From positions 1 through 64,000 of the forward strand of contig DATAUW010000003.1 in assembly GCA_036268055.1 (NCBI GenBank): a stretch of DNA of 64,000 nucleotides, in the 5' to 3' direction. Made by a program: the position numbers and the translations under genes. This DNA comes from Verrucomicrobiia bacterium. Lineage in GTDB: Bacteria > Verrucomicrobiota > Verrucomicrobiia > Limisphaerales > Pedosphaeraceae. The notes under the pieces were generated by a model. That model saw only the letters and a list, made by a program, of their open reading frames with translations, was not told the DNA's origin and made no database searches. Below, piece by piece: positions 23,285-39,916 of this stretch (positions are counted from its first letter, which is position 1; every line of letters begins with the position of its first letter).

Positions 23285-23324
23285 AAACCTGTCATTCCCT
23301 GTTTAACCTCGCCACTTCCCCTGC

Positions 23325-23372
23325 TGCGCAACTTCTGCGCACCTGAGCCGTTCCCTGCGCAGCTTCTGCGCG
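23325..23372. promoter_or_regulatory. Four TGCGCA half-sites, candidate enhancer (UAS)
   Basis: TGCGCA occurs at 23325, 23336 and 23356, with TGCGCG at 23367. They form two pairs (TGCGCAACTTCTGCGCA and TGCGCAGCTTCTGCGCG), 11 bp between starts within each pair and 31 bp between pairs, so all are nearly on one helix face. They lie about 60-110 bp upstream of the sigma-54 element, where activator sites usually sit. Confidence 0.55.
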
Positions 23373-23433
23373 AATTTCAAATTTCCCCTTCCCACCACCC
23401 CGGTTTTGGCTGCAAAATGCCATAACACCTGAT

Positions 23434-23449
23434 TGGCACGACAGTTGCA
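23434..23449 (+). promoter_or_regulatory. Sigma-54 (-24/-12) promoter
   Basis: TGGCACGACAGTTGCA matches the RpoN consensus TGGCACG-N4-TTGCA without mismatch, with exactly 10 bases between the GG and GC doublets. Transcription should begin about 23460, giving a 70-base leader to the 180-aa gene at 23531 and onward into the secretion operon. Confidence 0.8.
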
Positions 23450-23530
23450 TCCATAGGTCGAACACAACTGTTGGGAACGCAGTTTGGCCCCGCAGTGTCA
23501 ACTCAACCATTAACCAAATAACATATATAT

Positions 23531-24073
23531 ATGACAAAAATTAAGAGTCTCCTCCTGGCGGCGGGCTGTGCGGCCTTCCTCGTTTCCGGTTCCAACAGCG
23601 TCTTCGCCCAGGGTGGCGGACGCGGCAATTTCGATCCCGCTCAAATGCGCGAACGCATGGTCGAGCGCTATAAGGAATCCATGGACGTCACCGACGACGC
23701 CGAATGGAAAGTCCTCCAGGACGCCATCGGCAAAGTGATTGACGCCCGTTTTGAAGTCATGCAAGGCCAGTTCGGCGGCGGTCGCGGTGGTCGTCGTAAT
23801 AACAATAACAACGGCGACAACAACAATGCTGACAACAATGGCGGCCAGCAGCGCCGTCGTGGTGGTTTCGGCACTCCGAGCCCGGAAGCCGAAGCTCTCC
23901 AGAAGGCCATTGATGACAAAGCTCCCGCTGACGAAATCAAGGCCAAGCTCTCCGCGCTTCGCCAATCCAACGCCGCCAAGGACGCCAAACTCACCGCCGC
24001 GCAGGATGATTTGAAGAAATTGCTGACCGCGCGCCAGGAAGCTGTCGCCGTGTTGGGCGGTCTCTTGAAGTAA
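23531..24073 (+). CDS. Small secreted Gly/Asn-rich protein, first gene of the sigma-54 operon
   Basis: The 180-residue protein has a signal peptide (SLLLAAGCAAFLVSGSNSVF, then AQ). A short helical domain (DDAEWKVLQDAIGKVIDARF) follows, then a low-complexity Gly/Arg/Asn stretch (residues about 80-115) and a second helical part (EALQKAIDDKAPADEIKAKL). Similar small secreted helical proteins occur in Verrucomicrobiota, but I know no function. It lies 24 bases before gspE and directly behind the sigma-54 promoter. It may be an accessory factor, pilotin-like protein or substrate of the secretion system, which is inference from position only. Confidence 0.7.
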   Translation: MTKIKSLLLAAGCAAFLVSGSNSVFAQGGGRGNFDPAQMRERMVERYKESMDVTDDAEWKVLQDAIGKVIDARFEVMQGQFGGGRGGRRNNNNNGDNNNADNNGGQQRRRGGFGTPSPEAEALQKAIDDKAPADEIKAKLSALRQSNAAKDAKLTAAQDDLKKLLTARQEAVAVLGGLLK

Positions 24074-24097
24074 GTTGCACGCACGTTGACGATTCAC

Positions 24098-25846
24098 ATG
24101 AGCGAAACCCAAACAGCCACCAGTGACTTGCAGGCGCTTCTCGATCGTATGGTCGAAGCGCGGCAATTATCGTCAACGGACGCCTCGACCCTCGCGCGTC
24201 AAAACCGCTCGGGGGCCGATTCGCCTGCCCAGTCGGAGGACGAAATCCTCCGCTGGCTGGCGAAGGAATACGCGGTCGAATACACCACGCTCGATGACAT
24301 CGAGCCCGACCGCGAATTGCTTTCGCTCTTTCCCGCGCGCGTGTTGTTGAAGGAGGAAATCCTCCCGCTCAAGCGCGTCAACGGCACGGTGGAAGTCGCC
24401 ACCAGCCGCCTTTTCGCCACGCAAGGCCTCGACACGCTCAAGACGCTGACCGGTCTCAAGGTCAAGCCCGTGCTCGCCCCGAGCGAATCCATCCAGCGCG
24501 AGATGAAGAAGCATCTCGGCGTCGGCGCGGATACCATCGGCACGCTGGAGGAAGATGCCCCGCTGCAAGTGGTGGATGAAAATCGCGAGGACGGCAATCT
24601 GGATGATGCCGCTGAAGACGCCTCGATCATCCGCTTCGTGAACCAGGTTTTGTCTGATGCCGTCGAGCTTCGCGCGTCGGATATTCACCTTGAGCCTTTT
24701 GAAGATGAATTTCGCATTCGTTATCGTATTGACGGTGTTTTGCAGGAAGTCCCGGTGCCCGGACAACTCAAGCGTTTCCAGCCGGCCATCGTTTCGCGCA
24801 TCAAGATTCTCAGTCATTTGAACATCGCGGAAAAGCGGTTGCCGCAGGACGGCCGCATCAAGATTCGCCTCACGAACAATGAAGTGGACATCCGCGTGTC
24901 CGTCATTCCGATGCTTCACGGCGAAGCGGTCGTGCTGCGTTTGCTGCGCCAGAATTCCAAGAACACCGACCTCGGCATGGGCCAGCTCGGCATGGATGCC
25001 CGCGAACTCGCCAGCTTCAAGCGCGTCATCCAACTGCCGCACGGAATTATTTTGGTCACTGGCCCGACCGGCAGCGGCAAAACCACCACGCTTTACATCG
25101 CGCTCAGCGCCATCAACGACAGCGAGACCAAGATCATCACGATTGAAGACCCGATTGAGTATCAGCTTAAAGGCGTCAATCAAATCCAGGTCAACGAAAA
25201 GTCCGGGCTGACGTTCGCCAAGGGTTTGCGCTCCATTTTGCGCCATGACCCCGACGTCGTGCTCATCGGGGAAATTCGCGATACCGAAACCGCCCAGATC
25301 GCCGTGCAAGCCTCGCTCACCGGCCATTTGGTTTTCTCCACGCTGCACACCAACGACGCTCCCGGCGCGGTAACACGTCTGGTTGACATGAAAGTTGAGC
25401 CGTATCTCGTCGCCTCCTCGCTGGAAGCCGTCCTCGCACAACGTCTCGTGCGCGTCCTTTGCCCGTTGTGCAAAGTCGAAGACACCTCCAAGACCACCGC
25501 CGCGATCAAGGAACATCTCGGCTTTCCGCGCGACTTGAAAGTATTCCGCGCCGTCGGCTGCCGCGAATGCCGCAACACCGGTTTCCACGGACGCCACGGC
25601 ATCTTCGAGTGGATGGACATGAACACGGAAATCCAGGAAAAGATTTTGAAAAATTGTTCGAGCCACGAAATTCGCGAAGCCGCCTTGCGCAACGGTTTGC
25701 GCTCACTCAGCGACGACGGCTGGCGGCTCGTGCGCCAGGGCATTACCACGCCCGAGGAAGTCATGCGCGCCACCAAGGACCAGACTTTCGGCGCGACCGC
25801 GAAGGAAGAGATCAAGGCCGCCGCTGAAGAACCGAAAGCCGCGTAG
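24098..25846 (+). CDS. gspE: Type II secretion ATPase GspE
   Basis: I take ATG 24098 (MSETQTATSD), giving 582 residues; a TTG 12 bases upstream is possible. This is the cytoplasmic hexameric ATPase that powers pseudopilus assembly. An N1E-like domain (residues 10-150) leads into the catalytic core, with Walker A GPTGSGKTTT near 322, Asp box and Walker B region (VVLIGEIRDTETA) and His box (HLVFSTLHTNDA). The zinc tetracysteine motif is CPLC at 455-458 with CREC at 488-491, typical for GspE/PilB. It opens the secretion gene series and is followed by gspF after 2 bases. Confidence 0.94.
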   Translation: MSETQTATSDLQALLDRMVEARQLSSTDASTLARQNRSGADSPAQSEDEILRWLAKEYAVEYTTLDDIEPDRELLSLFPARVLLKEEILPLKRVNGTVEVATSRLFATQGLDTLKTLTGLKVKPVLAPSESIQREMKKHLGVGADTIGTLEEDAPLQVVDENREDGNLDDAAEDASIIRFVNQVLSDAVELRASDIHLEPFEDEFRIRYRIDGVLQEVPVPGQLKRFQPAIVSRIKILSHLNIAEKRLPQDGRIKIRLTNNEVDIRVSVIPMLHGEAVVLRLLRQNSKNTDLGMGQLGMDARELASFKRVIQLPHGIILVTGPTGSGKTTTLYIALSAINDSETKIITIEDPIEYQLKGVNQIQVNEKSGLTFAKGLRSILRHDPDVVLIGEIRDTETAQIAVQASLTGHLVFSTLHTNDAPGAVTRLVDMKVEPYLVASSLEAVLAQRLVRVLCPLCKVEDTSKTTAAIKEHLGFPRDLKVFRAVGCRECRNTGFHGRHGIFEWMDMNTEIQEKILKNCSSHEIREAALRNGLRSLSDDGWRLVRQGITTPEEVMRATKDQTFGATAKEEIKAAAEEPKAA

Positions 25847-25848
25847 CC

Positions 25849-27120: not shown

Positions 27121-27139
27121 ATTCAAAATCCATCGAACT

Positions 27140-27571
27140 ATGAAAATAAATCGCAGCAACTATCGTAGCTATACTGGCGCGCGCTCCGCATTTACCCTGA
27201 TCGAACTTTTGTTGGTGCTGGTCATCCTGGGCATCCTTGCGGCCATCGTCGTGCCGAGATTCGGCGGCGTCAGCGCCAACGCGCAGAAGAAAGCGGCGGC
27301 CACGCAGATCAGCACGCTCGCTACTTCGCTGGATATGTTCGAGGTGGACAACGGCCATTATCCCAAGTCGCTGAACGACCTTATGGTGCAGCCGCGCGAT
27401 TCCCAAAACTGGCATCAATATATGGAGTCCATCCCCGTTGATCCCTGGCAGCATCCTTACGTTTATGTGGCTCCGGGCAAGCACCGCCCGAATTCCTATG
27501 ACCTGTCGTCCATGGGGCCGGATGGAAGACCGGGAGGCGATGATGACATCGTTAACTGGCAAACGAAATAA
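27140..27571 (+). CDS. gspG: Major pseudopilin GspG
   Basis: The 143-residue protein has a 17-18-residue leader followed by the prepilin signature AFTLIELLLVLVILGILAAI, with Glu at mature position 5. The globular domain contains PKSLNDLMVQP, DPWQHPYVYV and the calcium-site loop SSMGPDGRPGGDDDIVNW, all typical of GspG. It forms the shaft of the pseudopilus that pushes substrates through the secretin. The processing peptidase GspO is not in this window. The gene follows gspF by 19 bases. Confidence 0.94.
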   Translation: MKINRSNYRSYTGARSAFTLIELLLVLVILGILAAIVVPRFGGVSANAQKKAAATQISTLATSLDMFEVDNGHYPKSLNDLMVQPRDSQNWHQYMESIPVDPWQHPYVYVAPGKHRPNSYDLSSMGPDGRPGGDDDIVNWQTK

Positions 27572-27959
27572 ATGGCGGCTGGCATTTAATACCTGCGCCG
27601 CGATTTTTTTTCTGATTGTGATTAGCGGAATATTGTCACCAATATTTTTTCCAATCTCGCATACCAGTAAAAATGCGCTAATGAAGGCCGCGAAAACCCA
27701 AATGAAAACTTTCGGAGCCGTATTGGAAATGTATCGCCACGATACCGGGCAGTTTCCGAATGGCCTCGTGGATTTGATGGTGCGCCCGGCGGCAGCGACA
27801 AATTGGACACAATATATGGAAGCCATTCCGATTGATCCCTGGGGACATCCATATATCTATATTTTTCCCGGCGAAAAGGATTCCAACACGTTTGGCCTTT
27901 CGTCAGCCGGGCCGGACGGACGTTTAGGAACCAAAGATGATATTGTTTATCAACCATGA
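27543..27959 (+). CDS. GspG-like protein lacking the prepilin cleavage motif
   Basis: From ATG 27543, overlapping the end of gspG by 29 bases, 138 residues are encoded. The C-terminal 95 residues repeat the GspG fold: FPNGLVDLMVRP, then QYMEAIPIDPWGHPYIYI and the calcium loop SSAGPDGRLGTKDDIVY. The N-terminus instead has an ordinary TM segment (FNTCAAIFFLIVISGILSPI) preceded by a basic stretch, with no G/A-FTLIE site and no Glu5. It therefore should not be processed or polymerised like a pseudopilin. It may be a membrane-anchored regulator or assembly factor derived from gspG. No frame error is apparent: the upstream sequence belongs to gspG in another frame. Confidence 0.75.
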   Translation: MTSLTGKRNKWRLAFNTCAAIFFLIVISGILSPIFFPISHTSKNALMKAAKTQMKTFGAVLEMYRHDTGQFPNGLVDLMVRPAAATNWTQYMEAIPIDPWGHPYIYIFPGEKDSNTFGLSSAGPDGRLGTKDDIVYQP

Positions 27960-28458
27960 ACAGCACAGCGGGCCACGCCATCGCCGCGCATTCACGCTCA
28001 TTGAGTTGATGCTGGTGATGGTGTTGCTGACGATTGTGATTTCATTGGTGGTTCCGCAGTTGGAAACATTTTTTGCCGGTCGCACGCTGAATTCGGAAGT
28101 GCAGCAGTTTGTGGCGTTGACACATTACGGGCAGAGTCGGGCGGCGTCCGAAGGCGTGCCGATGTTGCTGTGGGTGGACCCCGGCGCGGGCCAGTATGGT
28201 TTGGAACAGGAACCGGGTTACAACGATACCGACCCGAAGTCCGTGGAATACAGCGTGGGTGAAGGCGTGAAAATCGGCATCCCCAAGAACGGCATAAAAG
28301 CGGTCAAGCGCGGCAAGATGCAGGGCATCCATTTTTCGCCGGATGGAAATGTGGTGAAAGACACGAGCCTCGCGAGTGTGTTTTTTCAGGAAGGCAAGCA
28401 TGCGCCGGTGATCATCGGTCAGACGGCGAACGGGTTGAGTTATGAAGTGCAAAACTAA
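27937..28458 (+). CDS. gspH: Minor pseudopilin GspH
   Basis: The 173-residue protein starts at 27937, overlapping the previous gene by 23 bases. It has an 18-residue leader (MILFINHEQHSGPRHRRA) and the prepilin helix FTLIELMLVMVLLTIVISLV. The rest is a GspH/FimT-like beta domain (FVALTHYGQSRAASEGVPML, later GIHFSPDGNV). GspH joins the pseudopilus tip or shaft. It is the first of the minor pseudopilin genes H-I-J-K in standard order. Confidence 0.85.
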   Translation: MILFINHEQHSGPRHRRAFTLIELMLVMVLLTIVISLVVPQLETFFAGRTLNSEVQQFVALTHYGQSRAASEGVPMLLWVDPGAGQYGLEQEPGYNDTDPKSVEYSVGEGVKIGIPKNGIKAVKRGKMQGIHFSPDGNVVKDTSLASVFFQEGKHAPVIIGQTANGLSYEVQN

Positions 28459-28927
28459 AATACGAAACAGACTGGCGTGCCCGCAGAAATGCGCGGCGAC
28501 GCGCGTGCCGTATTTTGGCTACACGCTGATCGAATTGATCGTCTGCCTCGCATTGATGGCGGCGGTGATTCCGATCATCGTCCAGGGCTTGCACACAGCC
28601 GCGCTCGCGGGTGAAGTTTCCGAACGCAAGGCCCTCGCGGCGCGCATCGCCGACCGCGTGTTGAACGAAACCATCGTCAACGGCCAGACAATCACCGCGA
28701 CCAGCGGTTCCGAGCAGCAAGGCCCATTTCAATTTCATTGGACGGTGAAAAACGAACCGTGGACGCAAGCGGGCGGACTCGCGGCGAATGAAAATGCCAA
28801 CGGCGTGAATCAGGGCGTCGTGAACGAAAACCTGATTCACCAGCTTTCCGTGGATGTAGTTTACACCGCGCAAGGCAAGAATTTTTCCGTCCACCTCAGC
28901 ACGCTCATCAACACCTCGCAACCGTGA
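28442..28927 (+). CDS. gspI: Minor pseudopilin GspI
   Basis: The 161-residue protein has a 26-residue basic leader ending in Gly, followed by YTLIELIVCLALMAAVIPII, a prepilin helix with Tyr instead of Phe at the mature +1 position. The remainder (LAARIADRVLNETIVNGQTI, then GPFQFHWTVKNEPW) agrees with the GspI tip pseudopilin. It overlaps gspH by 17 bases and gspJ by 4 (ATGA), so it is part of a coupled series. Confidence 0.83.
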   Translation: MKCKTKIRNRLACPQKCAATRVPYFGYTLIELIVCLALMAAVIPIIVQGLHTAALAGEVSERKALAARIADRVLNETIVNGQTITATSGSEQQGPFQFHWTVKNEPWTQAGGLAANENANGVNQGVVNENLIHQLSVDVVYTAQGKNFSVHLSTLINTSQP

Positions 28928-29928
28928 ACCCTGCGCTCAAATCATCCAGTGCAACGGACAACGCGAGACTCCGCGAGCGAGGCGAAGTGGCGTGTATGCC
29001 GGCGCGCGCATCCACACAATACGCGTGTACAGAATTCTTCTCCTTCTCCGCCGCCGCCAGCGGGGGAGAGGGCCGGGGAGAGGTGGTCCCCTCCGTTCCG
29101 CCAGTTGTGAGAGTGCGCCCGTTGAGAGATACCATCGTTTTGTTGGAAGATAAAACCCTCCTCACCCCTTGCCCTCTCCTCCATGAAGGGTCATGGAGGA
29201 GAGGGAGTTCAGTTTCGGAAAATTTTACCCCTCGGGACAGTGCTGCATCGTCTCGGAGCTTTTCGCGCGAGCGCGATGCCTTTACCCTGATCGAACTGCT
29301 CATCGCCGTGGCCATTTCCGCCATCGTGCTCATTTCCATCAGCACCTTGTTTTTCGGCGCGATGAACTTGCGCGAGCGCGCGAGTGAATCCGCGGGCCGC
29401 ACGGCGCCGGTGGACCGCGCCATCGCGATCATGAAGCGCGACCTCGAAAATATCGTGCCCGTGGGCAAGCTCGCCGGTCCGATGGGCAGCGACGCCGTCG
29501 GCATCGGCATGGTTCAGCCCTCGCTTTTGGAAATTTTTACCGGCAGCGCGATGATCACGCCGGACGTGCCGTGGGGCGACGTCCAAAAAATTGATTATTC
29601 ACTGCAAGCGCCGGCCGGCCGTAACAACCTCGGTCGCGACCTTGTCCGCGGCGTGACGCGCAATCTCCTCGATCCCACCGGCACGCTGCCGCCCGATGCG
29701 CAGGTGCTTCTGCCGGGAGTCCAGACACTGCAATTTTCCTTTTACGACGGCACGAATTGGAACGACACCTGGAGCACCACGCTCTCGAACATCCCCATCG
29801 CCATTCGCGTGTTGATCAGTTTCGCCACCACGAAAAGCGATGCGGCCACCAAGCCGCCCGTGAATTTCGTGGTTCCCATCGTCACGTGGTCGAATACCAA
29901 TTCCATCACGAACCAAATCAGCAACTGA
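28924..29928 (+). CDS. gspJ: Minor pseudopilin GspJ with a 119-residue leader containing a repeat insertion
   Basis: The prepilin helix FTLIELLIAVAISAIVLISI begins only at residue 120. From there on the protein is a normal GspJ (about 215 residues; FFGAMNLRERASESAGRTAP, then VQTLQFSFYDGTNW). The first 119 residues are low-complexity and contain the translation of a palindromic repeat (TPCPLLHEGSWRRG) and a GGEGRGE stretch. Class III leaders are usually under 30 residues, so a repeat element seems to have landed between the start codon and the prepilin helix without breaking the frame. An unseen internal start near 29200 is possible, but I find no RBS-led ATG there. The stop overlaps gspK (TGATG). 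Confidence 0.8.
   Translation: MNPALKSSSATDNARLRERGEVACMPARASTQYACTEFFSFSAAASGGEGRGEVVPSVPPVVRVRPLRDTIVLLEDKTLLTPCPLLHEGSWRRGSSVSENFTPRDSAASSRSFSRERDAFTLIELLIAVAISAIVLISISTLFFGAMNLRERASESAGRTAPVDRAIAIMKRDLENIVPVGKLAGPMGSDAVGIGMVQPSLLEIFTGSAMITPDVPWGDVQKIDYSLQAPAGRNNLGRDLVRGVTRNLLDPTGTLPPDAQVLLPGVQTLQFSFYDGTNWNDTWSTTLSNIPIAIRVLISFATTKSDAATKPPVNFVVPIVTWSNTNSITNQISN
29041..29205. repeat. Palindromic repeat element inside the gspJ frame
   Basis: The right part is a perfect 15-bp inverted repeat, CCCTCTCCTCCATGA (29172-29186) and TCATGGAGGAGAGGG (29191-29205), with a 4-base loop. The left part has the GGGGGAGAGGGCCGGGGAGAGG block (about 29065-29086), opposed to CTTCTCCTTCTCC (29037-29049). It resembles the hairpin at 57-86. 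The element stays open in the gspJ frame, like protein-coding palindromic elements described in Rickettsia. Confidence 0.7.
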
Positions 29929-31298
29929 TGAATCTGCGCCCAAATAAAGCTGCCAGCATCGCCGGGTCGGAATACGGCTCGGTGCTGATTATTGTGCTGT
30001 GGATCATTTTTGGGCTCATCAGCATCACGCTTTATTTCGCGCACTCCATGAGCTTCGAGTTGCACACGGCGGACAACCGCGTGGCGGGCATGGAAGCCGA
30101 GCAAGCCATCGAAGGCGCGCGCCGCTACATCACCTGTGTGCTCTCGAACGTGAACGCCATCGGCATCCTCCCCGATCCCGCGACGTATCAGAACGAAGCC
30201 GTGCCCGTCGGCAACGCCCATTTCTGGCTCATCGGCCGCGGTGACGATACCCAGACTCCCGTGACCTCGCCGCACTTCGGGTTGATTGACGAATCCTCGA
30301 AGATCAACCTCAACAGCGCTTCGAGCAATGTCCTGTTTAATCTTCCGCGCATGACACCCGAGGTGATCGCGAATATTCTGGCATGGCGCAGCACGAACAC
30401 CACCACGCAATCCGGCGGTGCGGAGTCCGACACCTATCAAACGCTCCAGCCGCCTTACACCGCGAAGAATGCGCCCTTTGAAACCGTGGATGAGCTTCGC
30501 CTGGTTTATGGCATGGACATGGACACTCTCTACGGTGAGGATGCCAACCTGAACGGCGTGCTTGATCCCAATGAAAATGACGGCGACGCCTTGCCACCTT
30601 CCGACAATATGAACGGCACGCTCGATCCGGGCTTGCTGGAATATTGCACCGTCTATTCCGCCGAACCCGCGACCGACAGCAATGGCGCGACCCGCATCAA
30701 TGTCACGAGCGCGATCAATGAGACCACGCTGAAAAACATGATGATTACTAATGGCATCGCTGCCAATCGCGCGGATCAAATCATCGCGGCATCCGGCGTT
30801 GCCAATACCGGCACGACTTTCACGAGCGTGTTGCAATTTTATTATCGCAGCGGAATGTCCGTGACGGAATTTCCAAAAATCGAAGGCAGTTTGCGCGGCG
30901 CATCGCTCGTCGGCCTGATCAATGTGAACACCGCCAGCGAGGCCGTGCTCGCGTGCCTGCCCGGATTGACCAACGGCGAAGCCGCCCAACTCGTGCAATA
31001 TCGCCAGCAGAACACGAATAATATCAGCCAGACGCCCTCGATGGTTTGGGTGACGCAAGTGTTGTCGCAGCAGGACGCCGTCGCCGCCGGGCCGTACCTC
31101 ACCGGGCACAGTTATCAGTTCATGGCGGACGTCGCGGCCCTCGGGCATGAGGGGCGGGGTTACCGCCGCACCCGGTTTATTTTTGACACCCGGCAGGGGA
31201 TTCCGATTGTCCTGCATCGGCAGGACTTGAGCGAGCTGGGCTGGGCGCTCGGCAAAGACGTGCGGGACAAATGGCTCCTCGGCAAACAGAAACCATGA
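29928..31298 (+). CDS. gspK: Minor pseudopilin GspK
   Basis: The start at ATG 29928 overlaps the gspJ stop (TGATG) and gives 456 residues. The N-terminal helix (GSVLIIVLWIIFGLISITLY) lacks a classical FTLIE box, as in other GspK proteins. It is followed by the large alpha domain typical of GspK, with two helix-hairpin-helix-like SAM repeats (KINLNSASSNVLFNLPRMTP and GLINVNTASEAVLACLPGLT). A calcium-type Asp/Asn-rich insert (DANLNGVLDPNENDGDALP) lies between them. GspK caps the pseudopilus tip with I and J. It overlaps the next gene by ATGA. Confidence 0.9.
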   Translation: MNLRPNKAASIAGSEYGSVLIIVLWIIFGLISITLYFAHSMSFELHTADNRVAGMEAEQAIEGARRYITCVLSNVNAIGILPDPATYQNEAVPVGNAHFWLIGRGDDTQTPVTSPHFGLIDESSKINLNSASSNVLFNLPRMTPEVIANILAWRSTNTTTQSGGAESDTYQTLQPPYTAKNAPFETVDELRLVYGMDMDTLYGEDANLNGVLDPNENDGDALPPSDNMNGTLDPGLLEYCTVYSAEPATDSNGATRINVTSAINETTLKNMMITNGIAANRADQIIAASGVANTGTTFTSVLQFYYRSGMSVTEFPKIEGSLRGASLVGLINVNTASEAVLACLPGLTNGEAAQLVQYRQQNTNNISQTPSMVWVTQVLSQQDAVAAGPYLTGHSYQFMADVAALGHEGRGYRRTRFIFDTRQGIPIVLHRQDLSELGWALGKDVRDKWLLGKQKP

Positions 31299-32737
31299 TC
31301 AAACTTCCAAAAACCAAACGCGCTTCGTCGGTGCTGGGCATCAGCCTCGACGGCAATCGCCTTGAGGCCGTCGTGATGCGCCGGAATGGTTCGCTGCAAA
31401 TCCAGCAGACACTTTCCGTGCCGCTGGCGCTCTCGCCCTTGAGCGGCGATCCCGAACTCGTCGGCCGCGAAATCCGCAATCACCTCGATCAGGCGGGCAT
31501 CCGCGAGCGCCGTTGCGCCGTGTGCCTCCCGCTGAACTGGGTGCTCACGGTGCAGACCAAATTGCCCGACCTGCCGGAAGAAGACATCGCCAGTTTCCTG
31601 GCGCTTGAATCCGAACGCGGTTTTCCTTCGGGCCACGAGAATTTATACATCGCCGATTCGCGCGTGCGCGTCGCCGGTGGCGAACAATACGCCACGCTGC
31701 TGGGCATTCCGCGAAATCATATTGCGATTCTTGAGCGCGCCTTGAAAGCCGCGCAACTGAAGCCGCTCACTTTTTCCATCGGCATCACCGCGCTTGCCGC
31801 CGCCGGCACGGAATCACAACCCGGCCTGTTGACCCTCGGCATCGCGCCGCACGGAATTGATTTGCAAGTCAGCGCGGGCGGAGGCATCGCGGCGTTGCGC
31901 TCGCTCGATGGTGCGCTGGACACCGATGCCGCGCTCAAGGGCATTGACGCCGACCTCGTGGCGCGCGAAATCCGCATCACGCTCGGCCAGTTGCCCGCCG
32001 CCTTCGGCAAGGATGTTCGCCTCGCGCGCATTTATAGCCGCGGCGAAATCGCGCGCCAGTTCAATACCGACATCGCCCGCCGTCTCGAAGGCATGGGCCT
32101 CAAAGTCGAATTGATGGACCGCGCTTCCGACGCGCAATTTTCCACCGCGCCCTCGCCGGACATCGCGCTTTCACCCGCGCTCGCGCTCGCCGCGAATTTC
32201 CTTCGCAGCGGGCTTTCCAGGCCGGAATTTTTGCCGCCGAAAGTCCATCCCTGGCAGCAATTCATCAACAACAATCTGGCCTCGCGGAAATTCGGTTGGG
32301 TCGGCGCGGCGGCGGGCGGCGCGGCGGCGATCGTCATCATCGCTTTCCTCATCCAGCAATGGCAAATTTCGCGGCTCGAAAACCGCTGGCACGGCATGTC
32401 GGCGCAAGTGGCTGAATTATCCCATGCGCAGGACCAGATCCGCCGATTTCGTCCGTGGTACGACCGTTCGTTCCGCGCGATGCGCATCATGAAAGCCATC
32501 ACCGAGGCGTTTCCTGAAGCGGGCTATGTCTCCGCGAAGAATCTCGAAATCCACGATTTGTCGAACGTGACCTGCTCCGGCGTGGCGCGGGACAATCAAT
32601 CTTATCTCGCGCTGCTGGCGAAATTGCGCGCCGACAGCGAAGTGACGGATTTAAAAACAGAAATGGTGCGCGGCCAGGCGCCGGTGCAATTCACTCTGAA
32701 CTTTCAATGGGAAGCCAACAATGCCACTGGAAATTAA
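31295..32737 (+). CDS. gspL: GspL-type platform protein (PilM-PilN fusion architecture)
   Basis: The 480-residue protein starts at 31295 in an ATGA overlap with gspK. Its cytoplasmic N-terminal part is an actin-like PilM/GspL domain (SVLGISLDGNRLEAVVMRRN, then LPDLPEEDIASFLALESERG). One TM segment lies near residues 333-357 (VGAAAGGAAAIVIIAFLIQQ), followed by a coiled-coil/periplasmic ferredoxin-like PilN part. GspL recruits the ATPase GspE to the membrane and pairs with GspM. Single-chain PilM-PilN is the normal GspL layout. The assignment is strengthened by gene order K-L-M. Confidence 0.82.
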   Translation: MIKLPKTKRASSVLGISLDGNRLEAVVMRRNGSLQIQQTLSVPLALSPLSGDPELVGREIRNHLDQAGIRERRCAVCLPLNWVLTVQTKLPDLPEEDIASFLALESERGFPSGHENLYIADSRVRVAGGEQYATLLGIPRNHIAILERALKAAQLKPLTFSIGITALAAAGTESQPGLLTLGIAPHGIDLQVSAGGGIAALRSLDGALDTDAALKGIDADLVAREIRITLGQLPAAFGKDVRLARIYSRGEIARQFNTDIARRLEGMGLKVELMDRASDAQFSTAPSPDIALSPALALAANFLRSGLSRPEFLPPKVHPWQQFINNNLASRKFGWVGAAAGGAAAIVIIAFLIQQWQISRLENRWHGMSAQVAELSHAQDQIRRFRPWYDRSFRAMRIMKAITEAFPEAGYVSAKNLEIHDLSNVTCSGVARDNQSYLALLAKLRADSEVTDLKTEMVRGQAPVQFTLNFQWEANNATGN

Positions 32738-33266
32738 AAATCGCCAAAAACTCCTGATGATCCTCGCCGGGATCGCGGTGGGACTTTACGTCGGCGACAC
32801 GGTCATCCTCACGCCGCTGATCAATAGCTGGCATGCGCGCACCGACCGCATCGCCGATTTGCGCAAGCAGGTGGACGACGGCGAGCGCATGATCCGGCGT
32901 GCCGACCTCGTTCGCGGGCGTTGGGATGAAATGCAAACGAACGCGCTGCCCTCGAATGTTTCGCAGGCCGAGGCCGACATGCTGACCGCGCTCGACCACT
33001 GGGAACGCCGTGCCGGGCTCACGCGCATCTCGATCAAGCCGCAATGGAAACAGCCCGAGGACGATTACATGACGCTCGAATGCCGCGTGGATTATACCGG
33101 TGACATGTCGCGCATTTCCCGGTTTCTTTATGAGGTGGAAAATGATCGCATGGGCGTGAAAGTGGATAACGTGGAAATTTCGTCGCGCGACGATTCCGGG
33201 CGCACGCTCTCGCTCGGCCTCGAAGTCAGCGGCCTGCTCCTCAACCCGCCCCCGCAACCCCAATGA
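32721..33266 (+). CDS. gspM: GspM/PilO-like platform protein
   Basis: The 181-residue protein has a short cytoplasmic N-terminus, one TM segment (LLMILAGIAVGLYVGDTVIL) and a coiled coil (LINSWHARTDRIADLRKQVD). A periplasmic ferredoxin-like domain (YTGDMSRISRFLYEVENDRM, later VDNVEISSRD) follows. This is the PilO/GspM fold, the partner of GspL in the inner-membrane platform. It overlaps gspL by 17 bases and the next gene by 4 (ATGA). Confidence 0.8.
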   Translation: MPLEIKNRQKLLMILAGIAVGLYVGDTVILTPLINSWHARTDRIADLRKQVDDGERMIRRADLVRGRWDEMQTNALPSNVSQAEADMLTALDHWERRAGLTRISIKPQWKQPEDDYMTLECRVDYTGDMSRISRFLYEVENDRMGVKVDNVEISSRDDSGRTLSLGLEVSGLLLNPPPQPQ

Positions 33267-33916
33267 AGCCCAAATCATTTAAAATATTTTTATTGGCGGG
33301 CTTGCTGGCCGCGAGCGCAACGGCGCGCGCGCAGGACACGAATGCGGTCGCGGGCACAAACGCGGTCGCAACCACCAATGCCAATTCCAGCGCCACTGCC
33401 GCCAGCAACAGCATGGCAGTGACGGATTTTCATTCGTTCGATTTGATCTCGAAACGAAATATTTTTGATCCGACTCGTTCGGGGACGAGAATTATTCGAC
33501 GCACCGAACGCCCGCCGCGCGTGGATTCGTTCACCCTGGTGGGCACGATGAGTTATGAGCAGGGGCGGTACGCGTTTTTCGATAGCAACAGTTCGGAATA
33601 CCGCAAGACGCTGAAACCGATGGATAAAATTGCGGGATATAAGATCACGCAGATCGCCGACGACCATATCGTGCTGGCGGCGTCGAGCAACCGGACGTTT
33701 AATTTGCCCGTCGGCATGCGCATGCGGCGGCAGGAAGGCGGCTCGTGGCGGAAGGCGGACGGTTCGGACGCGGACGAGACGTCCATTTCCACGCCGTCGG
33801 ATTCCACCGGCAGCAACACAGCGATAACTGGGAGTCCGGCGAGCGCGCCGGAATCGAGCGGCCCGGAGAGTGATGTGATGAAGCGAATGATGATGAAGCG
33901 AATGAGCGAAAAATAA
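33263..33916 (+). CDS. GspC/PilP-like periplasmic connector
   Basis: The 217-residue protein carries a cleavable-looking signal (SFKIFLLAGLLAASATARAQ) and a Thr/Asn/Ala-rich linker. A homology-region-like domain begins at FDLISKRNIFDPTR and continues through VDSFTLVGTMSYEQGRYAFF and KITQIADDHIVL. GspC and PilP use this domain to link the platform to the secretin N0 domain. True GspC has a TM anchor; the leader here could be either an uncleaved anchor or a signal. The Ser/Met/Arg-rich tail is probably disordered. It lies directly before the secretin genes, as gspC often does. Confidence 0.7.
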   Translation: MKPKSFKIFLLAGLLAASATARAQDTNAVAGTNAVATTNANSSATAASNSMAVTDFHSFDLISKRNIFDPTRSGTRIIRRTERPPRVDSFTLVGTMSYEQGRYAFFDSNSSEYRKTLKPMDKIAGYKITQIADDHIVLAASSNRTFNLPVGMRMRRQEGGSWRKADGSDADETSISTPSDSTGSNTAITGSPASAPESSGPESDVMKRMMMKRMSEK

Positions 33917-33921
33917 AACCT

Positions 33922-35664
33922 ATGAAAAAAACTCTTTTACTGATCGGACTGGCCGGCGCGTTGTGCGCCACGGCGACTTTGCGCGCCGCCAATGATACCA
34001 ATACAGCAGAGGCGGCAACCGTCGCCGCCCCGACCACGACCGGCGACGATCAACCGCTGCCGCCGCCACCGCCGGATGATGCCGCCGCGCCCGACAACAA
34101 TGCCGCCCCGCCGGCTCCCGCCGACGTGTCCGCGCCGTCCACGCCATCCACACCTGCGACAACGACGCCATCCACTCCGTCATTTACGCCGGCGGTGACC
34201 TCGCCCTCCGCGCCGGTGTATGTTCCCGACACGAATGTCATTGTGCCGGTGCCGACCGGTGTGCGCGGGTTGCATTTGAACTTCCGCAATGCGCCTTTGG
34301 AAGCCGTGTTGAATTACATGAGCGCGGCGGCGGGTTTCATCATTCATCCCAAGACCGACATCAGCGGCAAAGTCACCGTCTGGAGCGAACAGCCGCTGAC
34401 CAGTGACGAAGCGGTGAAATTACTCACGCGCATTCTCAACGATAACGGTTACACGTTGCTGCCCGAAGGCCGCACGCTGACGATCATCCGCACTTCAGAC
34501 GCGAGGTTTAATAATATCCCGGTCATCGTGAATCCCGATCCCGCGACCATTCCTACGACGGCGGACATCGTGACCCAGATCATTCCGGTGCATAGCCTGA
34601 ACGTCGTGCAATTAGTCAAAGACCTCGACCCGTTGCGCCCGCCGGACACGACCATCACGGCGGATGACTCCGCCAATTCGCTGGTGATCACCGGCACGCA
34701 AGCCAACATCCATCGCTTCGCCCAGATCATCGCCGGACTTGATTCGGTAAATTCCAGCAGCGCCACCGTCAAGGTGTATCCGTTGAAATATGCGGATTCA
34801 AAAGCGCTGGCGACTTTGATCACGTCTCTGTTTCCGACTCCCGATTCGCAGGGTGGTCGCGGTGGTGGCGGTGGCGGGCTTTTTGGACGTTTCCGCGGTG
34901 GCGGTGGCGGCGGGTTCAACCCATTCGGCGGCGGAGGTGGTGGCGGTGGCGATGATGCCGTCAACAATGGCCATACCCCGACGGCGAAGGTCACGGCGGT
35001 TTCGGATGACCACAGCAATTCCCTCGTCGTGAGCGTGCCGGACAGTTTGATCGCCACGATTGACGACCTCGTGGCCCAGGTGGATACGGCGGTCGAAAAT
35101 TCAACGATCATGAAAGTGTTTCATCTCAAGAATGCCGATCCTTCGGAAATGGCGGATTTGCTCACGGCGTTGTATCCCGATGACACCGGCTCGGCCGATG
35201 CCAGCCAAACACGCTTCGGTTTTGGTGGTTTTCCCTTTGGCAACCGGGGAGGAAGACAGCAAAATTCCAGCAACGCCGAGAGTGACCGCATGAAAAAAAT
35301 GGCCCACGTCAGCGCCGTCGCGGACAAGCGCACTTCGTCGCTCGTGGTGACTGCGGACACGAACGTCATGGACCAGATCCAGGTCATGATTGACGACCTG
35401 GATGCGCGCAACGACCGCAAGATGGCCGTGCATATCATCCCGCTGGATTACGCGGACCCGATAGACGTGCAGACGATCTTGCAGGACATCTATCCGGCGA
35501 CGAGCGCGGCGGGCGGCAGTTCGCGCATCGGCAGCAGTTCGGCCAGTTCCACCAGCAATCCGCTGTTGAACCGCGCCAATACGCTTTTGCAGCAACAGAA
35601 TAATACCTCCCAGTCCTCGGCCTTTGGCAGCGGCGCAACCGGCGGCACGGGCAAGGCCTTTTAA
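33922..35664 (+). CDS. Secretin periplasmic part (GspD N-domains only)
   Basis: The 580-residue protein has a signal peptide (LLLIGLAGALCATATLRAAN) and a Pro/Ala/Asp-rich linker to about residue 105. An N0/STN domain follows (LHLNFRNAPLEAVLNYMSAA), then three N1-N3-type KH-like repeats (for example IIPVHSLNVVQLVKDLDPLR, VYPLKYADSKALATLITSLF, VFHLKNADPSEMADLLTALY, HIIPLDYADPIDVQTILQDI). They are separated by Gly-rich inserts around residues 310-350. It stops without any beta-barrel secretin domain. The next gene supplies that domain with its own signal peptide, so GspD is split into two exported chains. The gene starts 5 bases after the GspC-like gene. Confidence 0.85.
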   Translation: MKKTLLLIGLAGALCATATLRAANDTNTAEAATVAAPTTTGDDQPLPPPPPDDAAAPDNNAAPPAPADVSAPSTPSTPATTTPSTPSFTPAVTSPSAPVYVPDTNVIVPVPTGVRGLHLNFRNAPLEAVLNYMSAAAGFIIHPKTDISGKVTVWSEQPLTSDEAVKLLTRILNDNGYTLLPEGRTLTIIRTSDARFNNIPVIVNPDPATIPTTADIVTQIIPVHSLNVVQLVKDLDPLRPPDTTITADDSANSLVITGTQANIHRFAQIIAGLDSVNSSSATVKVYPLKYADSKALATLITSLFPTPDSQGGRGGGGGGLFGRFRGGGGGGFNPFGGGGGGGGDDAVNNGHTPTAKVTAVSDDHSNSLVVSVPDSLIATIDDLVAQVDTAVENSTIMKVFHLKNADPSEMADLLTALYPDDTGSADASQTRFGFGGFPFGNRGGRQQNSSNAESDRMKKMAHVSAVADKRTSSLVVTADTNVMDQIQVMIDDLDARNDRKMAVHIIPLDYADPIDVQTILQDIYPATSAAGGSSRIGSSSASSTSNPLLNRANTLLQQQNNTSQSSAFGSGATGGTGKAF

Positions 35665-35703
35665 TCAACCGCATTGGATTTCAACCCAGAAAGAAATTAT
35701 ATC

Positions 35704-36942
35704 ATGATCGTAAACATACTGAAACAATGCCGTTGGGCTGCGGTCGTTGCCTTTTGGCTCGCGGCGGCGGTCGCCGTGGACGCGCAACAACGGGGCGGCG
35801 GCGGCGGTGGTGGATTCGGCGGCGGCGGTGGCACTGGATTTCGCACCAGTTCATCGGGATCATCAGCCTCTTCGGCGGGCAGCGGTTCCTCGACGCGCGA
35901 TTATCCCAACGCCACTCTCCCGGGCGATGCCACGTTCAGTTACGACCCCGAGACGCATAGTCTGGTCGTGATGTCCGATGACGCGACCTTCGCGCACATC
36001 AGCGAGGTCGTTTCCAATCTCGACCGTCCCAAACCCCAGGTGTTGATCAAGGTGGTTTTCCTCGAAGTGCAGCACGACGACGCGCTGGATTTCGGTGTGG
36101 AAGGCGGCTATCACCACAACAGCAATCCGTCCTTGTTCGGCACGGGAGCGCCGGGCGTGGGGACTTCAAATGTTTTCGGCCTTAGCCAATTAGGCGCAAG
36201 CGGCGAGCAGATCGGGCAAACCGTGGTGCCCGGCGGCGCGGGTTTGTATTCGGTGATGGCGAGTGACTTCAATGCGACGGTTCGCGCGATTGCTTCGGCG
36301 CAAAAAGTCGAAGTGCTGTCGCGTCCGTCCATTATGGTTCGCAACAATCAGCCCGCGACGATCACGGTCGGCCAATCCGTGCCGCTCGTTACCGGCGTGG
36401 AAGCGGCCACGATCGCGTCCGGACCGGTCAGCGAAATCACTTACCAGAGCGTGGGAATTATTTTGCAGGTCACGCCGTTCATTTCGTCGGATGGGTTGGT
36501 GGAAATGATCGTCGCGCCGCAGATTTCCAGTTTGTCGGCGCAGACGGTGGCGGTGTCCAGCAATGTCAACGCCCCGGTCATTGATTTGCGTTCGGCCAGC
36601 ACGGTGGTCGTGACGCCCGACGGCCAGACGGTGGTCATCGGCGGTTTGATGGAGCACGACAAGACGATCATTGATACGAAGATTCCGGTGCTGGGAGACA
36701 TTCCGCTGCTGGGAAATCTGTTCAAGCACAAGCAAAGCGCCACCACCAAAAAAGAATTGATGATTTTCCTGACACCGCATGTTGTCTCGATGCCGAACCA
36801 GATCGCGAGCGTGAGCAAGCACGAGGAAAAAGCCGCGGACTTGTCGCGCCGCTCCTTCGGCGAACAGGAGCTGGATCAATATTTTGACCGGTTGCCCACG
36901 AAACCTCATACGGTCTGGAGTTCGCCCGAAACGGTGAAATAA
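35704..36942 (+). CDS. gspD: Secretin channel part (GspD C-terminal domain)
   Basis: Starting at ATG 35704, the 412-residue protein has a signal peptide (WAAVVAFWLAAAVAVDAQ) and a Gly/Ser-rich stretch. A single N3-like module (FSYDPETHSLVVMSDDATFA) leads into the complete secretin barrel domain: PQVLIKVVFLEVQ, VEVLSRPSIMVRNNQPATIT and the secretin signature IPVLGDIPLLGNLFK, then KKELMIFLTPHVV. It should form the outer-membrane channel together with the N-domain protein encoded 39 bases upstream. A C-terminal S-domain-like tail of about 50 residues is present; no pilotin gene was identified with certainty. Confidence 0.9.
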   Translation: MIVNILKQCRWAAVVAFWLAAAVAVDAQQRGGGGGGGFGGGGGTGFRTSSSGSSASSAGSGSSTRDYPNATLPGDATFSYDPETHSLVVMSDDATFAHISEVVSNLDRPKPQVLIKVVFLEVQHDDALDFGVEGGYHHNSNPSLFGTGAPGVGTSNVFGLSQLGASGEQIGQTVVPGGAGLYSVMASDFNATVRAIASAQKVEVLSRPSIMVRNNQPATITVGQSVPLVTGVEAATIASGPVSEITYQSVGIILQVTPFISSDGLVEMIVAPQISSLSAQTVAVSSNVNAPVIDLRSASTVVVTPDGQTVVIGGLMEHDKTIIDTKIPVLGDIPLLGNLFKHKQSATTKKELMIFLTPHVVSMPNQIASVSKHEEKAADLSRRSFGEQELDQYFDRLPTKPHTVWSSPETVK

Positions 36943-36963
36943 CGCGCCTTGAACTGGCGCGTT
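36941..36963 (+). terminator. Hairpin at the end of the secretion operon
   Basis: AACGCGCC (36941-36948) and GGCGCGTT (36956-36963) form a perfect 8-bp stem with a 7-base loop starting inside the secretin stop codon. There is no T tract, so it may only attenuate transcription into the sensor kinase gene. A second small dyad, GGCATTC/GAATGCC, lies at 36989-37008. Confidence 0.4.
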
Positions 36964-37045
36964 CTCTGAGGCAAGTATAACGCATGCCGGCATTCGCGAA
37001 GGAATGCCCGTGCGCGGTACGCGATTTGAAAAACCATAACTCATT

Positions 37046-38533
37046 ATGACGCGCCGCAGTTGGCTGGTTTACGGAACGCTGCTGGCGATCTGGCTGGCGT
37101 TGCTCGGCTGGCAGGGTGCGGAGCATCTGCGCGTGCGCCGCGCCGCGCGCGGGCTCTTGCGGCATCGCGCGGAGGACATCTCGAACACGCTGGCCTTGAT
37201 CATGCGCGTGACCGCGCGCGGGCCGTTTTCCCCGAAGGAAAGAATCGAACCGTGGCTCGAGGAGTTGGTGAAGGAGGGCGAGGTTTATTCCATCAAATTG
37301 TATAACGCGCAGGGCGAGGAACTCGTCGGCGCGGGTGCGCCCATCGAATTGCCCAAGGACGAATTGCCCAATGGAGAATATTGGGATGATGAGGAGCAGA
37401 AGGTCACGCTGAAGAATCTGGTGGATCTGGGCACGAACATCATCAGCACCTTTCCCACCAACCGCCCGCCGCGACCCGACTTTGACGGGCGTCCGCCGGG
37501 CGATACCAACGGCCCTCCGGGAGATTTCAATTCGCCGCCCCCACCGCCGCCCGACCTGGCGGGAATGACGAATATGCCGCCGGGCACAAATGGTTTCGAC
37601 GGCACCAACGGGATGCGCCGGGGCCCGCGCCGCCCGCGCCTGACGCCGGCGGAAATGCAGACGTTACGCGAGAAAAAAGGCGCGCATGGGTTCGTGATGG
37701 TCATGTCCGCGCGCTCGGTGGCGATGGTGATGGAACAGGATTTGTGGCTGCGGCTCATCATCGCGATTTTGGCGACCGTGGGAGTCGTGGGTTACGGACT
37801 AGCGTGGAACAACGCGAACAAAACTTCCGAATTGCAGATCCGCCTGGTGCGCGCGAGCGAATCGAATCTGCATCTGAAGGAAATGAATTTGGCCGCCGCC
37901 GGTTTGGCGCATGAAACCCGCAACCCGCTCAACATCGTGCGCGGCCTGGCGCAAATGATCTCGAAGCAGGAAGACGCCTCGCCGGAGATCCGGCTCAAAT
38001 CGCGCGAAATCATTGACGAGAGCGACCGCGTGGCGGCGCAGTTGAACGAGTTCATCAATTATTCGCGTCCGCGCGAAGTGCGCCGGGCGGCGACGCGCTT
38101 GAACTCTGTCGTCGGCGAAGTGGTGCGCGCATTGAATTACGACATCGAGGAAAAACACGTGCAGGTGCAGAACCTGGCCGAGGAATTAGTCATCGAGGCG
38201 GATGAACAGTTGTTGCGGCAAGCCTTGTTCAATCTGGTGATGAATGCCATTCAAGCGGTCGCGGACAAGGGCGAGATCCAGATTCGCACGGGAAAACAAG
38301 GCAATGCGGAAGCGTTCATCGAGATCGCCGACAACGGCCCGGGCGTCGCGCCGGACCAGCGCAAGGAAATTTTCAAACCTTACTTCACGACCCACGAGGA
38401 AGGCACCGGCCTCGGCCTCGCGGTGGTGCAACAGATCGTGCTCGCGCATGGCTGGGAAATTGAATGCGTGGCCAACCAGCCGGCCGGGGCGAATTTCCGC
38501 ATCACGCATGTGAAGCTCACGGCGAAAGGGTGA
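37046..38533 (+). CDS. Membrane sensor histidine kinase (NtrB/ZraS type)
   Basis: The 495-residue kinase has a first TM segment at about residues 8-24 and a second near 232-253 (LIIAILATVGVVGYGLAW). The periplasmic sensor between them of about 200 residues is notably rich in Pro, Gly, Asp and Asn in its second half. The kinase core shows the H box GLAHETRNPLNIVRG, N box NLVMNAIQA, G1 DNGPGVAPDQRK and G2 GTGLGLAVVQQIV. It lies 3 bases before an NtrC-type regulator gene, its likely partner. The location behind the secretion operon suggests that it senses envelope or secretion status. Confidence 0.9.
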   Translation: MTRRSWLVYGTLLAIWLALLGWQGAEHLRVRRAARGLLRHRAEDISNTLALIMRVTARGPFSPKERIEPWLEELVKEGEVYSIKLYNAQGEELVGAGAPIELPKDELPNGEYWDDEEQKVTLKNLVDLGTNIISTFPTNRPPRPDFDGRPPGDTNGPPGDFNSPPPPPPDLAGMTNMPPGTNGFDGTNGMRRGPRRPRLTPAEMQTLREKKGAHGFVMVMSARSVAMVMEQDLWLRLIIAILATVGVVGYGLAWNNANKTSELQIRLVRASESNLHLKEMNLAAAGLAHETRNPLNIVRGLAQMISKQEDASPEIRLKSREIIDESDRVAAQLNEFINYSRPREVRRAATRLNSVVGEVVRALNYDIEEKHVQVQNLAEELVIEADEQLLRQALFNLVMNAIQAVADKGEIQIRTGKQGNAEAFIEIADNGPGVAPDQRKEIFKPYFTTHEEGTGLGLAVVQQIVLAHGWEIECVANQPAGANFRITHVKLTAKG

Positions 38534-38536
38534 GTC

Positions 38537-39916
38537 ATGCCCCCCGAAACTCCCAAGCCGTCCGCAACCACCCCGCGCATCCTGATTGTGGATGACGACG
38601 CCGGGCAGCGGAGTTTGCTCAACACTTTTCTCACCAGCCAGGGATTAAAAACTGTGGTCGTTGATTCGGGGGAACGCGCGCTGGAAGTTTTGCGCAGCGA
38701 AGAAATCGCCATGATGATTTCGGACGTGCGCATGCCGGGAATTTCCGGGCTCGACACGCTGCGGCTCGCCCGCCAGGAACACGCGCGGCTGCCGATCCTG
38801 CTCGTCACCGCGTTCACCGACGTGCGCGACGCCGTGCACGCGATCCGTGACGGCGCGGTGGATTATCTCGCCAAGCCGATTGACCTCGACCAGTTGCTGG
38901 CGCTGGTGCGGCAGGCCACCGGACTTTCGCGCACCGCGCCGCTGAAGTTCAATGACAACCGGCAACTGCCGCCGCGGGTCATCGCGCAAAGCCCGCTGAT
39001 GCAGGCGATTTTTCGCGACACCTCGCTCATCGCGCCTTCCGAAAGCCGCGTGCTCATCACCGGCGAAAGCGGCGTGGGCAAGGAAGTTTTGGCGGAAGTC
39101 ATCCACGCGTGGAGCCCGCGTGCGGCGGGGCCGCTGGTGAAGGTGAATTGCGCGGCGATTCCCGAGACGCTGCTGGAAAGCGAATTGTTCGGTCACGAAA
39201 AAGGCTCGTTCACGGGCGCGGTGGCGCAACGCATCGGCCGTTTTGAGACGGCCAACGGCGGCACGATTTTTTTGGATGAGATCGCCGAGATGTCACCGCA
39301 GTTGCAGGCGAAGCTGCTGCGCGTGGCGCAGGACGGGCGTTTCCAGCGCATCGGATCGAACACGGAAATCCACGTCAACGCGCGCATCCTCGCCGCGACG
39401 AATCGCAATCTCGAAGAGGAAGTCAAGGCGGGGCGTTTTCGCGAAGACCTTTTTTATCGCCTCAATGTCGTCGAGTTGAACATCCCGCCGTTGCGCGAGC
39501 GGCGCGAAGATATTTTGCCGCTGGCGACGCAAATTCTCGGCGACCTGACGAAAGGCCGCGCGAGATTGTCGCAAGCCGTGGCGGAATCGCTGGAGCGATA
39601 TTCCTGGCCGGGCAACGTGCGGGAATTGCGGAACGCGATGGAACGCGCGGCGCTGCTTTCAGGTGGCGAACTGATTTTGCCGGAGCACTTGCCGGCGCGC
39701 GTGCGTTCAGGAGCGGCCCGCGCGCAAACGCCCGATGAAATGCCCGCCGACGCGCGGCGGCTCGAAGAAGTGGAACGCACGGCGGTGCTCGAAGCATTGC
39801 GAAAAAATGATTTCAACCGCACGGAAACCGCGAAGGCGCTGGGCATCAGCCGCCGCGCGCTGCTGTATAAATTACAGCGGCTGCGCGAGCAGGGATTTGA
39901 AGTGGACGCGGTTTAA
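38537..39916 (+). CDS. NtrC-family sigma-54-dependent response regulator
   Basis: The 459-residue protein has a receiver domain with phospho-acceptor Asp63 (MMISDVRMPG) and conserved Lys in DYLAKPID. The AAA+ activator domain has Walker A GESGVGKE near 176-183, the sigma-54 contact loop as GSFTGA near 224 (consensus GAFTGA) and Walker B GGTIFLDEIAEM. A Fis-type HTH closes the protein (FNRTETAKALGISRRALLYK). It should activate RpoN promoters after phosphorylation by the neighbouring kinase. The only consensus -24/-12 site I saw in the window stands before the secretion operon at 23434, a plausible target. Confidence 0.93.
   Translation: MPPETPKPSATTPRILIVDDDAGQRSLLNTFLTSQGLKTVVVDSGERALEVLRSEEIAMMISDVRMPGISGLDTLRLARQEHARLPILLVTAFTDVRDAVHAIRDGAVDYLAKPIDLDQLLALVRQATGLSRTAPLKFNDNRQLPPRVIAQSPLMQAIFRDTSLIAPSESRVLITGESGVGKEVLAEVIHAWSPRAAGPLVKVNCAAIPETLLESELFGHEKGSFTGAVAQRIGRFETANGGTIFLDEIAEMSPQLQAKLLRVAQDGRFQRIGSNTEIHVNARILAATNRNLEEEVKAGRFREDLFYRLNVVELNIPPLRERREDILPLATQILGDLTKGRARLSQAVAESLERYSWPGNVRELRNAMERAALLSGGELILPEHLPARVRSGAARAQTPDEMPADARRLEEVERTAVLEALRKNDFNRTETAKALGISRRALLYKLQRLREQGFEVDAV

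What the first reader, a model, noticed from the sequence alone, without database searches (positions are those of the whole stretch)
23325..23460. Consensus sigma-54 promoter with phased enhancer half-sites before the type II secretion operon
A perfect TGGCACG-N4-TTGCA element is preceded at typical enhancer distance by four TGCGCA/G half-sites phased at 11 and 31 bp. A kinase and NtrC-type activator lie at the operon end. Sigma-54 control of a whole type II secretion system by a linked two-component system would be an uncommon regulatory circuit.
Basis: partly seen in the sequence, partly recalled or inferred. Interest (0 to 1): 0.65.

Follow-up and report, generated by a model that had tools for sequence, protein, structure and literature searches.

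The report
Sigma-54 switch for type II secretion
A whole protein-export machine in a group of soil and water bacteria (Verrucomicrobiota) appears to be switched on from one sigma-54 promoter by its own sensor-regulator pair; the DNA switch is conserved across the order and is missing, with few exceptions, where the regulator is missing.

Summary
A perfect -24/-12 element (23434-23449) lies downstream of two 17-bp dyads, TGCGCA-N5-TGCGCA/G (23325-23341 and 23356-23372), 31 bp apart. In one genome the sigma-54 motif alone is not above chance; the conserved composite is. It precedes the same T2SS operon in 53 of 80 species loci (0.1 expected). An exact-pattern search of 293 genomes of the order found 35 matches, one per genome, with no hits for the reversed control; all 30 inspected precede this operon. 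Presence of the sites tracks the NtrC-type regulator at the operon end: 57/59 genomes with it have dyads, 21/25 without it lack them. A GspE tree gives about five independent co-changes and almost none opposed, but that corrected test alone has p of about 0.06. Best reading: the operon-encoded kinase and regulator activate the whole T2SS operon through RpoN. Binding, start site and RpoN dependence remain untested. Sigma-54 control of a T2SS has partial precedents, so this is a new, order-wide variant of a known kind. In passing: the operon's secretin is split into two genes in all 13 relatives examined.

The parts
23325..23341 (+). Distal enhancer-like dyad TGCGCAACTTCTGCGCA, centre about -127
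   Evidence: conserved in relatives
23356..23372 (+). Proximal enhancer-like dyad TGCGCAGCTTCTGCGCG, centre about -96; 31 bp from the distal one
   Evidence: conserved in relatives
23434..23449 (+). Sigma-54 -24/-12 element TGGCACGACAGTTGCA; predicted +1 about 23460
   Evidence: conserved
23531..24073 (+). First gene: small exported helical protein (P0001); weak Metal_resist (ZraP/CnrX-like) signal in some homologues
24086..25846 (+). gspE, secretion ATPase
   Evidence: Pfam T2SSE 1e-136; TIGR02533
25849..27120 (+). gspF
   Evidence: Pfam T2SSF; TIGR02120
27140..27571 (+). gspG, major pseudopilin
   Evidence: TIGR01710 above cut-off
27937..28927 (+). Two minor pseudopilin-like genes (27937-28458, 28442-28927)
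   Evidence: N_methyl matches
28924..31298 (+). gspJ- and gspK-like genes (28924-29928, 29757-31298)
   Evidence: T2SSJ, T2SSK
31271..33916 (+). Three genes: unrecognised 31271-32737, PilO/GspM-like 32721-33266, unrecognised 33263-33916
   Evidence: conserved order in relatives
33922..35664 (+). Secretin part 1: signal peptide, N0 and three Secretin_N domains
35674..36942 (+). Secretin part 2: own signal peptide and the secretin domain
37046..38533 (+). Membrane sensor histidine kinase, best NCBIfam match ZraS (below cut-off)
   Evidence: at the operon end in 12/12 relatives
38537..39916 (+). NtrC-type response regulator (receiver, AAA+ with GSFTGA, Fis-type HTH), proposed activator

Best explanation
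The T2SS operon 23531-39916 is transcribed from one sigma-54 promoter starting near 23460. The kinase encoded at 37046-38533 phosphorylates the NtrC-type regulator encoded at 38537-39916. The regulator binds two dyads (consensus YGCGCAA-N3-TTGCGCR) about three helical turns apart, near -96 and -127 here and near -76 and -108 in most relatives. It oligomerises and, by DNA looping and ATP hydrolysis, opens the closed RNA polymerase-sigma-54 complex. Since kinase and regulator appear to belong to the same operon, this is a dedicated, probably self-reinforcing switch for one secretion machine. Shown: site conservation, spacing, co-occurrence with the regulator, presence of rpoN, gene order. Inferred: binding, phosphotransfer, transcription of all genes from this promoter, autoregulation, and the signal, which is unknown but likely sensed in the periplasm.
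For: Perfect -24/-12 element and two dyads in the window. One rpoN and nine full-length NtrC-type activators in the genome. 53/80 genome loci, Verrucomicrobiota wherever the titles name a phylum, have linked dyad and sigma-54 site against 0.1 expected. The proximal dyad start lies 57-60 bp from the -24 box in most loci and 78-79 bp in the window's own close kin, two helical turns further; pooled distances concentrate in phase at 10.5 bp (R 0.70). An exact composite pattern in 293 genomes of the order gave 35 genomes with one match each and none for the reversed control; 30/30 inspected precede the P0001-type gene, 28 with gspE also in the stretch read. Regulator and dyads co-occur: 57 with both, 21 with neither, 6 discordant (Fisher 9e-14, not corrected for kinship); independent pairs on the GspE tree about 4-5 concordant, almost none opposed. 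G027 on a long contig keeps the operon but lacks kinase, regulator and sites. P0001 paralogues outside the operon lack the sites. The regulator's recognition helix region (NRT..A..LGISRR) is nearly invariant in orthologues and differs from the other eight activators of this genome. Kinase and regulator close the operon in 12/12 relatives examined.
Against: No experiment. The phylogenetically corrected co-loss test has too few independent events to be significant alone (median p 0.06). Discordant genomes: L140 and L029 have the regulator but no clear dyads; L168, L030 and L019 have sites but no regulator found (incomplete assemblies may explain these); L127 keeps one weak dyad without a sigma-54 site. 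In G055 the regulator lies 240 kb from the operon. A 103-bp gap with two inverted repeats separates secretin and kinase genes, so kinase and regulator may have their own promoter.
Confidence: 0.87

Rival explanations
1. The sigma-54 promoter and dyads are real, but they drive mainly the first gene (P0001); the T2SS genes and the kinase/regulator pair are transcribed from their own promoters.
For: P0001 has paralogues away from the T2SS; gaps between P0001 and gspE reach 50-110 bp in some relatives; a 103-bp gap with inverted repeats precedes the kinase gene.
Against: The P0001-gspE gap here is 12 bp with no terminator-like site on the + strand there; P0001 is followed by gspE in nearly all loci; paralogues outside the operon lack the sites, so the sites belong to the operon and not to the P0001 family.
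Confidence: 0.1
2. The dyads are bound by some other regulator (for example a repressor), and the sigma-54 promoter is activated by one of the other eight NtrC-type proteins.
For: Binding is not shown; the genome has nine full-length activators; in G055 the regulator is unlinked to the operon.
Against: Sites and this regulator co-occur across 84 genomes, whereas more distant NtrC-type proteins are present in all 58 relatives searched; the dyad has NtrC format and enhancer-like, phased spacing.
Confidence: 0.05
3. The motif is a chance match or a non-regulatory repeat.
For: The sigma-54 consensus alone is not enriched in this genome.
Against: Order-wide conservation with fixed spacing, zero control hits, loss with the regulator.
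Confidence: 0.01

Closest known systems
NtrC/glnA-type sigma-54 promoter with paired enhancers (Escherichia coli)
   Same: 17-bp dyads, two sites about three turns apart, around -100 and -130, activator with receiver/AAA+/Fis-HTH; layout of the NtrC site from own knowledge (TGCACCA-N3-TGGTGCA)
   Different: Half-site core is TGCGCAA, not TGCACCA; the target is a secretion operon; regulator and kinase lie at the end of the operon they appear to control
RpoN-dependent T2SS-2 cluster of Plesiomonas shigelloides (PMC9743648)
   Same: A whole T2SS gene cluster falls in expression without RpoN (RNA-seq and qRT-PCR, as reported there)
   Different: Direct control was not shown in the passages read; different phylum; no operon-embedded two-component system is described in the passages read
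LipQ/LipR of Pseudomonas alcaligenes (reviewed in PMC12134079)
   Same: NtrC-type two-component system with sigma-54 serving extracellular enzyme production; a link to the xcp T2SS genes is from memory only and was not confirmed here
   Different: The documented target is a lipase gene, not an operon that contains both regulator and T2SS
ZraPSR of Escherichia coli (PMC8249747)
   Same: An NtrC-type regulator and membrane kinase adjacent to essentially one target promoter, whose first gene encodes a small periplasmic protein; the kinase's best NCBIfam match is ZraS
   Different: A 13-kb T2SS gene block lies between the small gene and the kinase; no model reaches its cut-off; membership not shown

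Membership tests
Sigma-54-dependent promoter | GG at -24 and GC at -12 with correct spacing | tested here: met
   TGGCACGACAGTTGCA
Sigma-54-dependent promoter | rpoN in the genome | tested here: met
   one Sigma54_DBD match 3.7e-60
Sigma-54-dependent promoter | upstream activator sites, conserved and in helical phase | tested here: met
Sigma-54-dependent promoter | transcription lost without RpoN | not testable with these tools
   needs an rpoN deletion
NtrC-family response regulator | receiver, sigma-54 AAA+ domain with GAFTGA-type loop, Fis-type HTH | tested here: met
   Pfam matches; GSFTGA
NtrC-family response regulator | binds the dyads of this promoter | not testable with these tools
   only indirect: co-occurrence
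Type II secretion system | GspD, E, F, G, J and K homologues in one operon | tested here: met
   most equivalog scores below NCBIfam cut-offs, GspG above
Type II secretion system | GspC and GspL | tested here: inconclusive
   not recognised; only a PilO/GspM-like protein
ZraPSR system | ZraP-type periplasmic protein | tested here: inconclusive
   Metal_resist in 4/21 homologues (best 1.5e-5), not in the window protein; fold matches to CnrX, CpxP and Spy are not significant
ZraPSR system | ZraS/ZraR equivalog score | tested here: not met
   174.4 against cut-off 479 and 395.2 against 760

The most novel reading that the evidence does not exclude
An order-wide, single-target sigma-54 switch in Verrucomicrobiota in which a T2SS operon carries its own NtrC-type regulator and kinase, with a ZraP/CnrX-like exported protein as first gene acting as sensor partner of the kinase, so that the state of the periplasm or of the secretion machine feeds back on its own expression.
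Probability: 0.3. Interest if true: 0.7.

Novelty: new variant of a known kind. Interest (0 to 1): 0.55.

Why it matters
T2SS regulation is known mainly from Pseudomonadota. A 2025 survey of sigma-54 regulons says that direct sigma-54 control over all T2SS genes is not fully established (PMC12316311). Here one promoter, one regulator and one site pair are conserved over an order that is mostly known from metagenomes, so the circuit and its signal become directly testable, and the site predicts which species can switch secretion on by RpoN and which have lost that control.

Tried and rejected
Further targets in the window's genome: of the 30 sigma-54-like sites examined, no other has dyads with up to 2 mismatches. 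The two neighbouring one-mismatch dyads at G000:C11:39125-39161 lie among genes with no evident link to this operon; not pursued. Sigma-70 alternative: no + strand match in 22000-24500. P0001 as a CpxP/Spy/ZraP relative: no significant fold match, Z at most 7.2 for a helical model, so left as a hint. Regulator copy in G055: no dyads or sigma-54 sites near it. Literature: searches for LipR with xcp and for Verrucomicrobia with sigma-54 and T2SS gave nothing on point.

Full report
What is there. The sequence at 23434-23449 is TGGCACGACAGTTGCA, a perfect -24/-12 element, 81 bp ahead of the ATG of a small exported protein (23531). Upstream lie TGCGCAACTTCTGCGCA (23325-23341) and TGCGCAGCTTCTGCGCG (23356-23372). 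Each is a 17-bp dyad, TGCGCA-N5-TGCGCA/G, with centres near -127 and -96 from the predicted start at 23460. The perfect dyad is the only one in the 5.1-Mb assembly.

Chance in one genome. The sigma-54 consensus alone proves little: 42 sites with up to one mismatch in the genome against 52 for the reversed pattern, two of them perfect. Of the 30 such sites whose surroundings were read, only this one has dyads with up to two mismatches upstream.

The operon. 23531-39916 encodes, in one direction and with mostly small or no gaps, a small exported helical protein, GspE, F, G, two pseudopilin-like proteins, GspJ- and GspK-like proteins, three assembly proteins (one PilO/GspM-like), a secretin in two pieces, a membrane histidine kinase and an NtrC-type response regulator with receiver, sigma-54 AAA+ domain (GSFTGA loop) and Fis-type HTH. 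The genome has one rpoN and nine full-length NtrC-type activators.

Conservation. Homologues of the first gene occur in 38 of 58 genomes searched (the window's own included), nearly always just before gspE. Their upstream regions mostly carry the same dyads and sigma-54 site. In 80 further loci from public genomes, Verrucomicrobiota wherever the title names a phylum, many labelled Pedosphaera, Limisphaerales or subdivision 3, 53 have a linked dyad (up to 2 mismatches) and sigma-54 site (up to 3, GG and GC kept) against 0.1 expected from first-order Markov sequences. Some of these genomes are also among the 58 relatives. The proximal dyad begins 57-60 bp before the -24 box in most species and 78-79 bp in the window's close kin, a shift of two helical turns. 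Centre-to-centre distances are mostly 29-34 bp. Pooled distances concentrate in phase at 10.5 bp (R 0.70; the loci are related, so the Rayleigh p is only a guide). The base profiles are partly fixed by the selection of sites.

Unbiased search. The exact pattern GCGCA-N5-TGCGC-N40-45-TGGCAYR-N5-TGC in 293 genomes of the order matched once in each of 35 genomes; the reversed control never matched. All 30 matches fetched precede a homologue of the first gene, and 28 also show gspE in the stretch read. The site thus seems dedicated to this operon. The window's own promoter is not matched by this pattern because its spacing is two turns longer.

Link to the regulator. Orthologues of the 38537 regulator (57-83% identity) stand apart from paralogues (below 50%). 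Of 84 genomes with labels for both traits, 57 have regulator and dyads, 21 have neither, 2 have the regulator only and 4 have dyads only (regulator data). On a GspE tree, independent contrasts run 4-5 concordant and almost none opposed, but with so few events p is about 0.06; the Fisher value (9e-14) ignores kinship. G027 is telling: the operon lies on a 650-kb contig and ends after the secretin genes, with kinase, regulator, dyads and sigma-54 site all absent. Paralogues of the first gene outside the operon lack the sites. The HTH of the regulator is nearly invariant among orthologues and unlike the other activators of the genome. Kinase and regulator close the operon in all 12 relatives read in full.

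Mechanism. Kinase, phosphorylated regulator, binding to both dyads, looping, opening of the RNA polymerase-sigma-54 complex, transcription of the T2SS operon including kinase and regulator. Presence and conservation of the parts are shown; binding, phosphotransfer, one long transcript and positive feedback are inferred. The 103-bp gap before the kinase gene has two inverted repeats without a T-run, which leaves room for separate or reduced expression of the pair.

The first gene. AlphaFold gives confident helices around a disordered Gly/Asn-rich middle (mean pLDDT 78). Four of 21 homologues match Metal_resist weakly. CnrX, CpxP and Spy are among the fold matches, but none is significant. The kinase's best named match is ZraS, far below its cut-off. 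A ZraP-like role is possible; that the gene is kept in species without kinase and regulator speaks for some role of its own in secretion.

Literature. RpoN-dependent expression of a T2SS cluster is reported for Plesiomonas shigelloides (PMC9743648), and sigma-54/NtrC-type control of lipase genes for Pseudomonas (PMC12134079). A 2025 survey notes that direct sigma-54 control of all T2SS genes is not fully established and finds T2SS genes enriched mainly in Myxococcia (PMC12316311). An earlier comparison ties sigma-54 to the bacterial exterior (PMC3162934). I found no report of this circuit in Verrucomicrobiota, in a library that lacks most subscription journals.

Verdict. Observation confirmed and interpretation supported, as a new variant of a known kind.

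Noticed in passing
window 33922-35664 and 35674-36942; L064, L175-L186: The T2SS secretin is split into two genes, an N-domain protein and a secretin-domain protein, the second with its own signal peptide. In the 13 relatives read, the two parts are likewise separate matches, in most with a stop between them or in different frames. Split secretins are described for rhizobial T3SS (rhcC1/rhcC2, PMC3973906); I found none described for a T2SS.
   Followed up: partly
G002:C14:145942-147185, G005:C121:4550-5726: The first gene of the operon is present as two tandem copies in two close relatives.
   Followed up: no
G055:C24:54983-56308: The regulator lies about 240 kb from the T2SS operon, with no kinase gene seen beside it, yet the promoter keeps its dyads.
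   Followed up: partly
window 36943-37045: Two perfect inverted repeats (AACGCGCC/GGCGCGTT and GGCATTC/GAATGCC) without a T-run lie between the secretin and kinase genes; possible attenuation of kinase and regulator.
   Followed up: no
G000:C38:80478-80493: A second perfect sigma-54 consensus (TGGCACGTATTTTGCA) in the genome, without the dyads.
   Followed up: no
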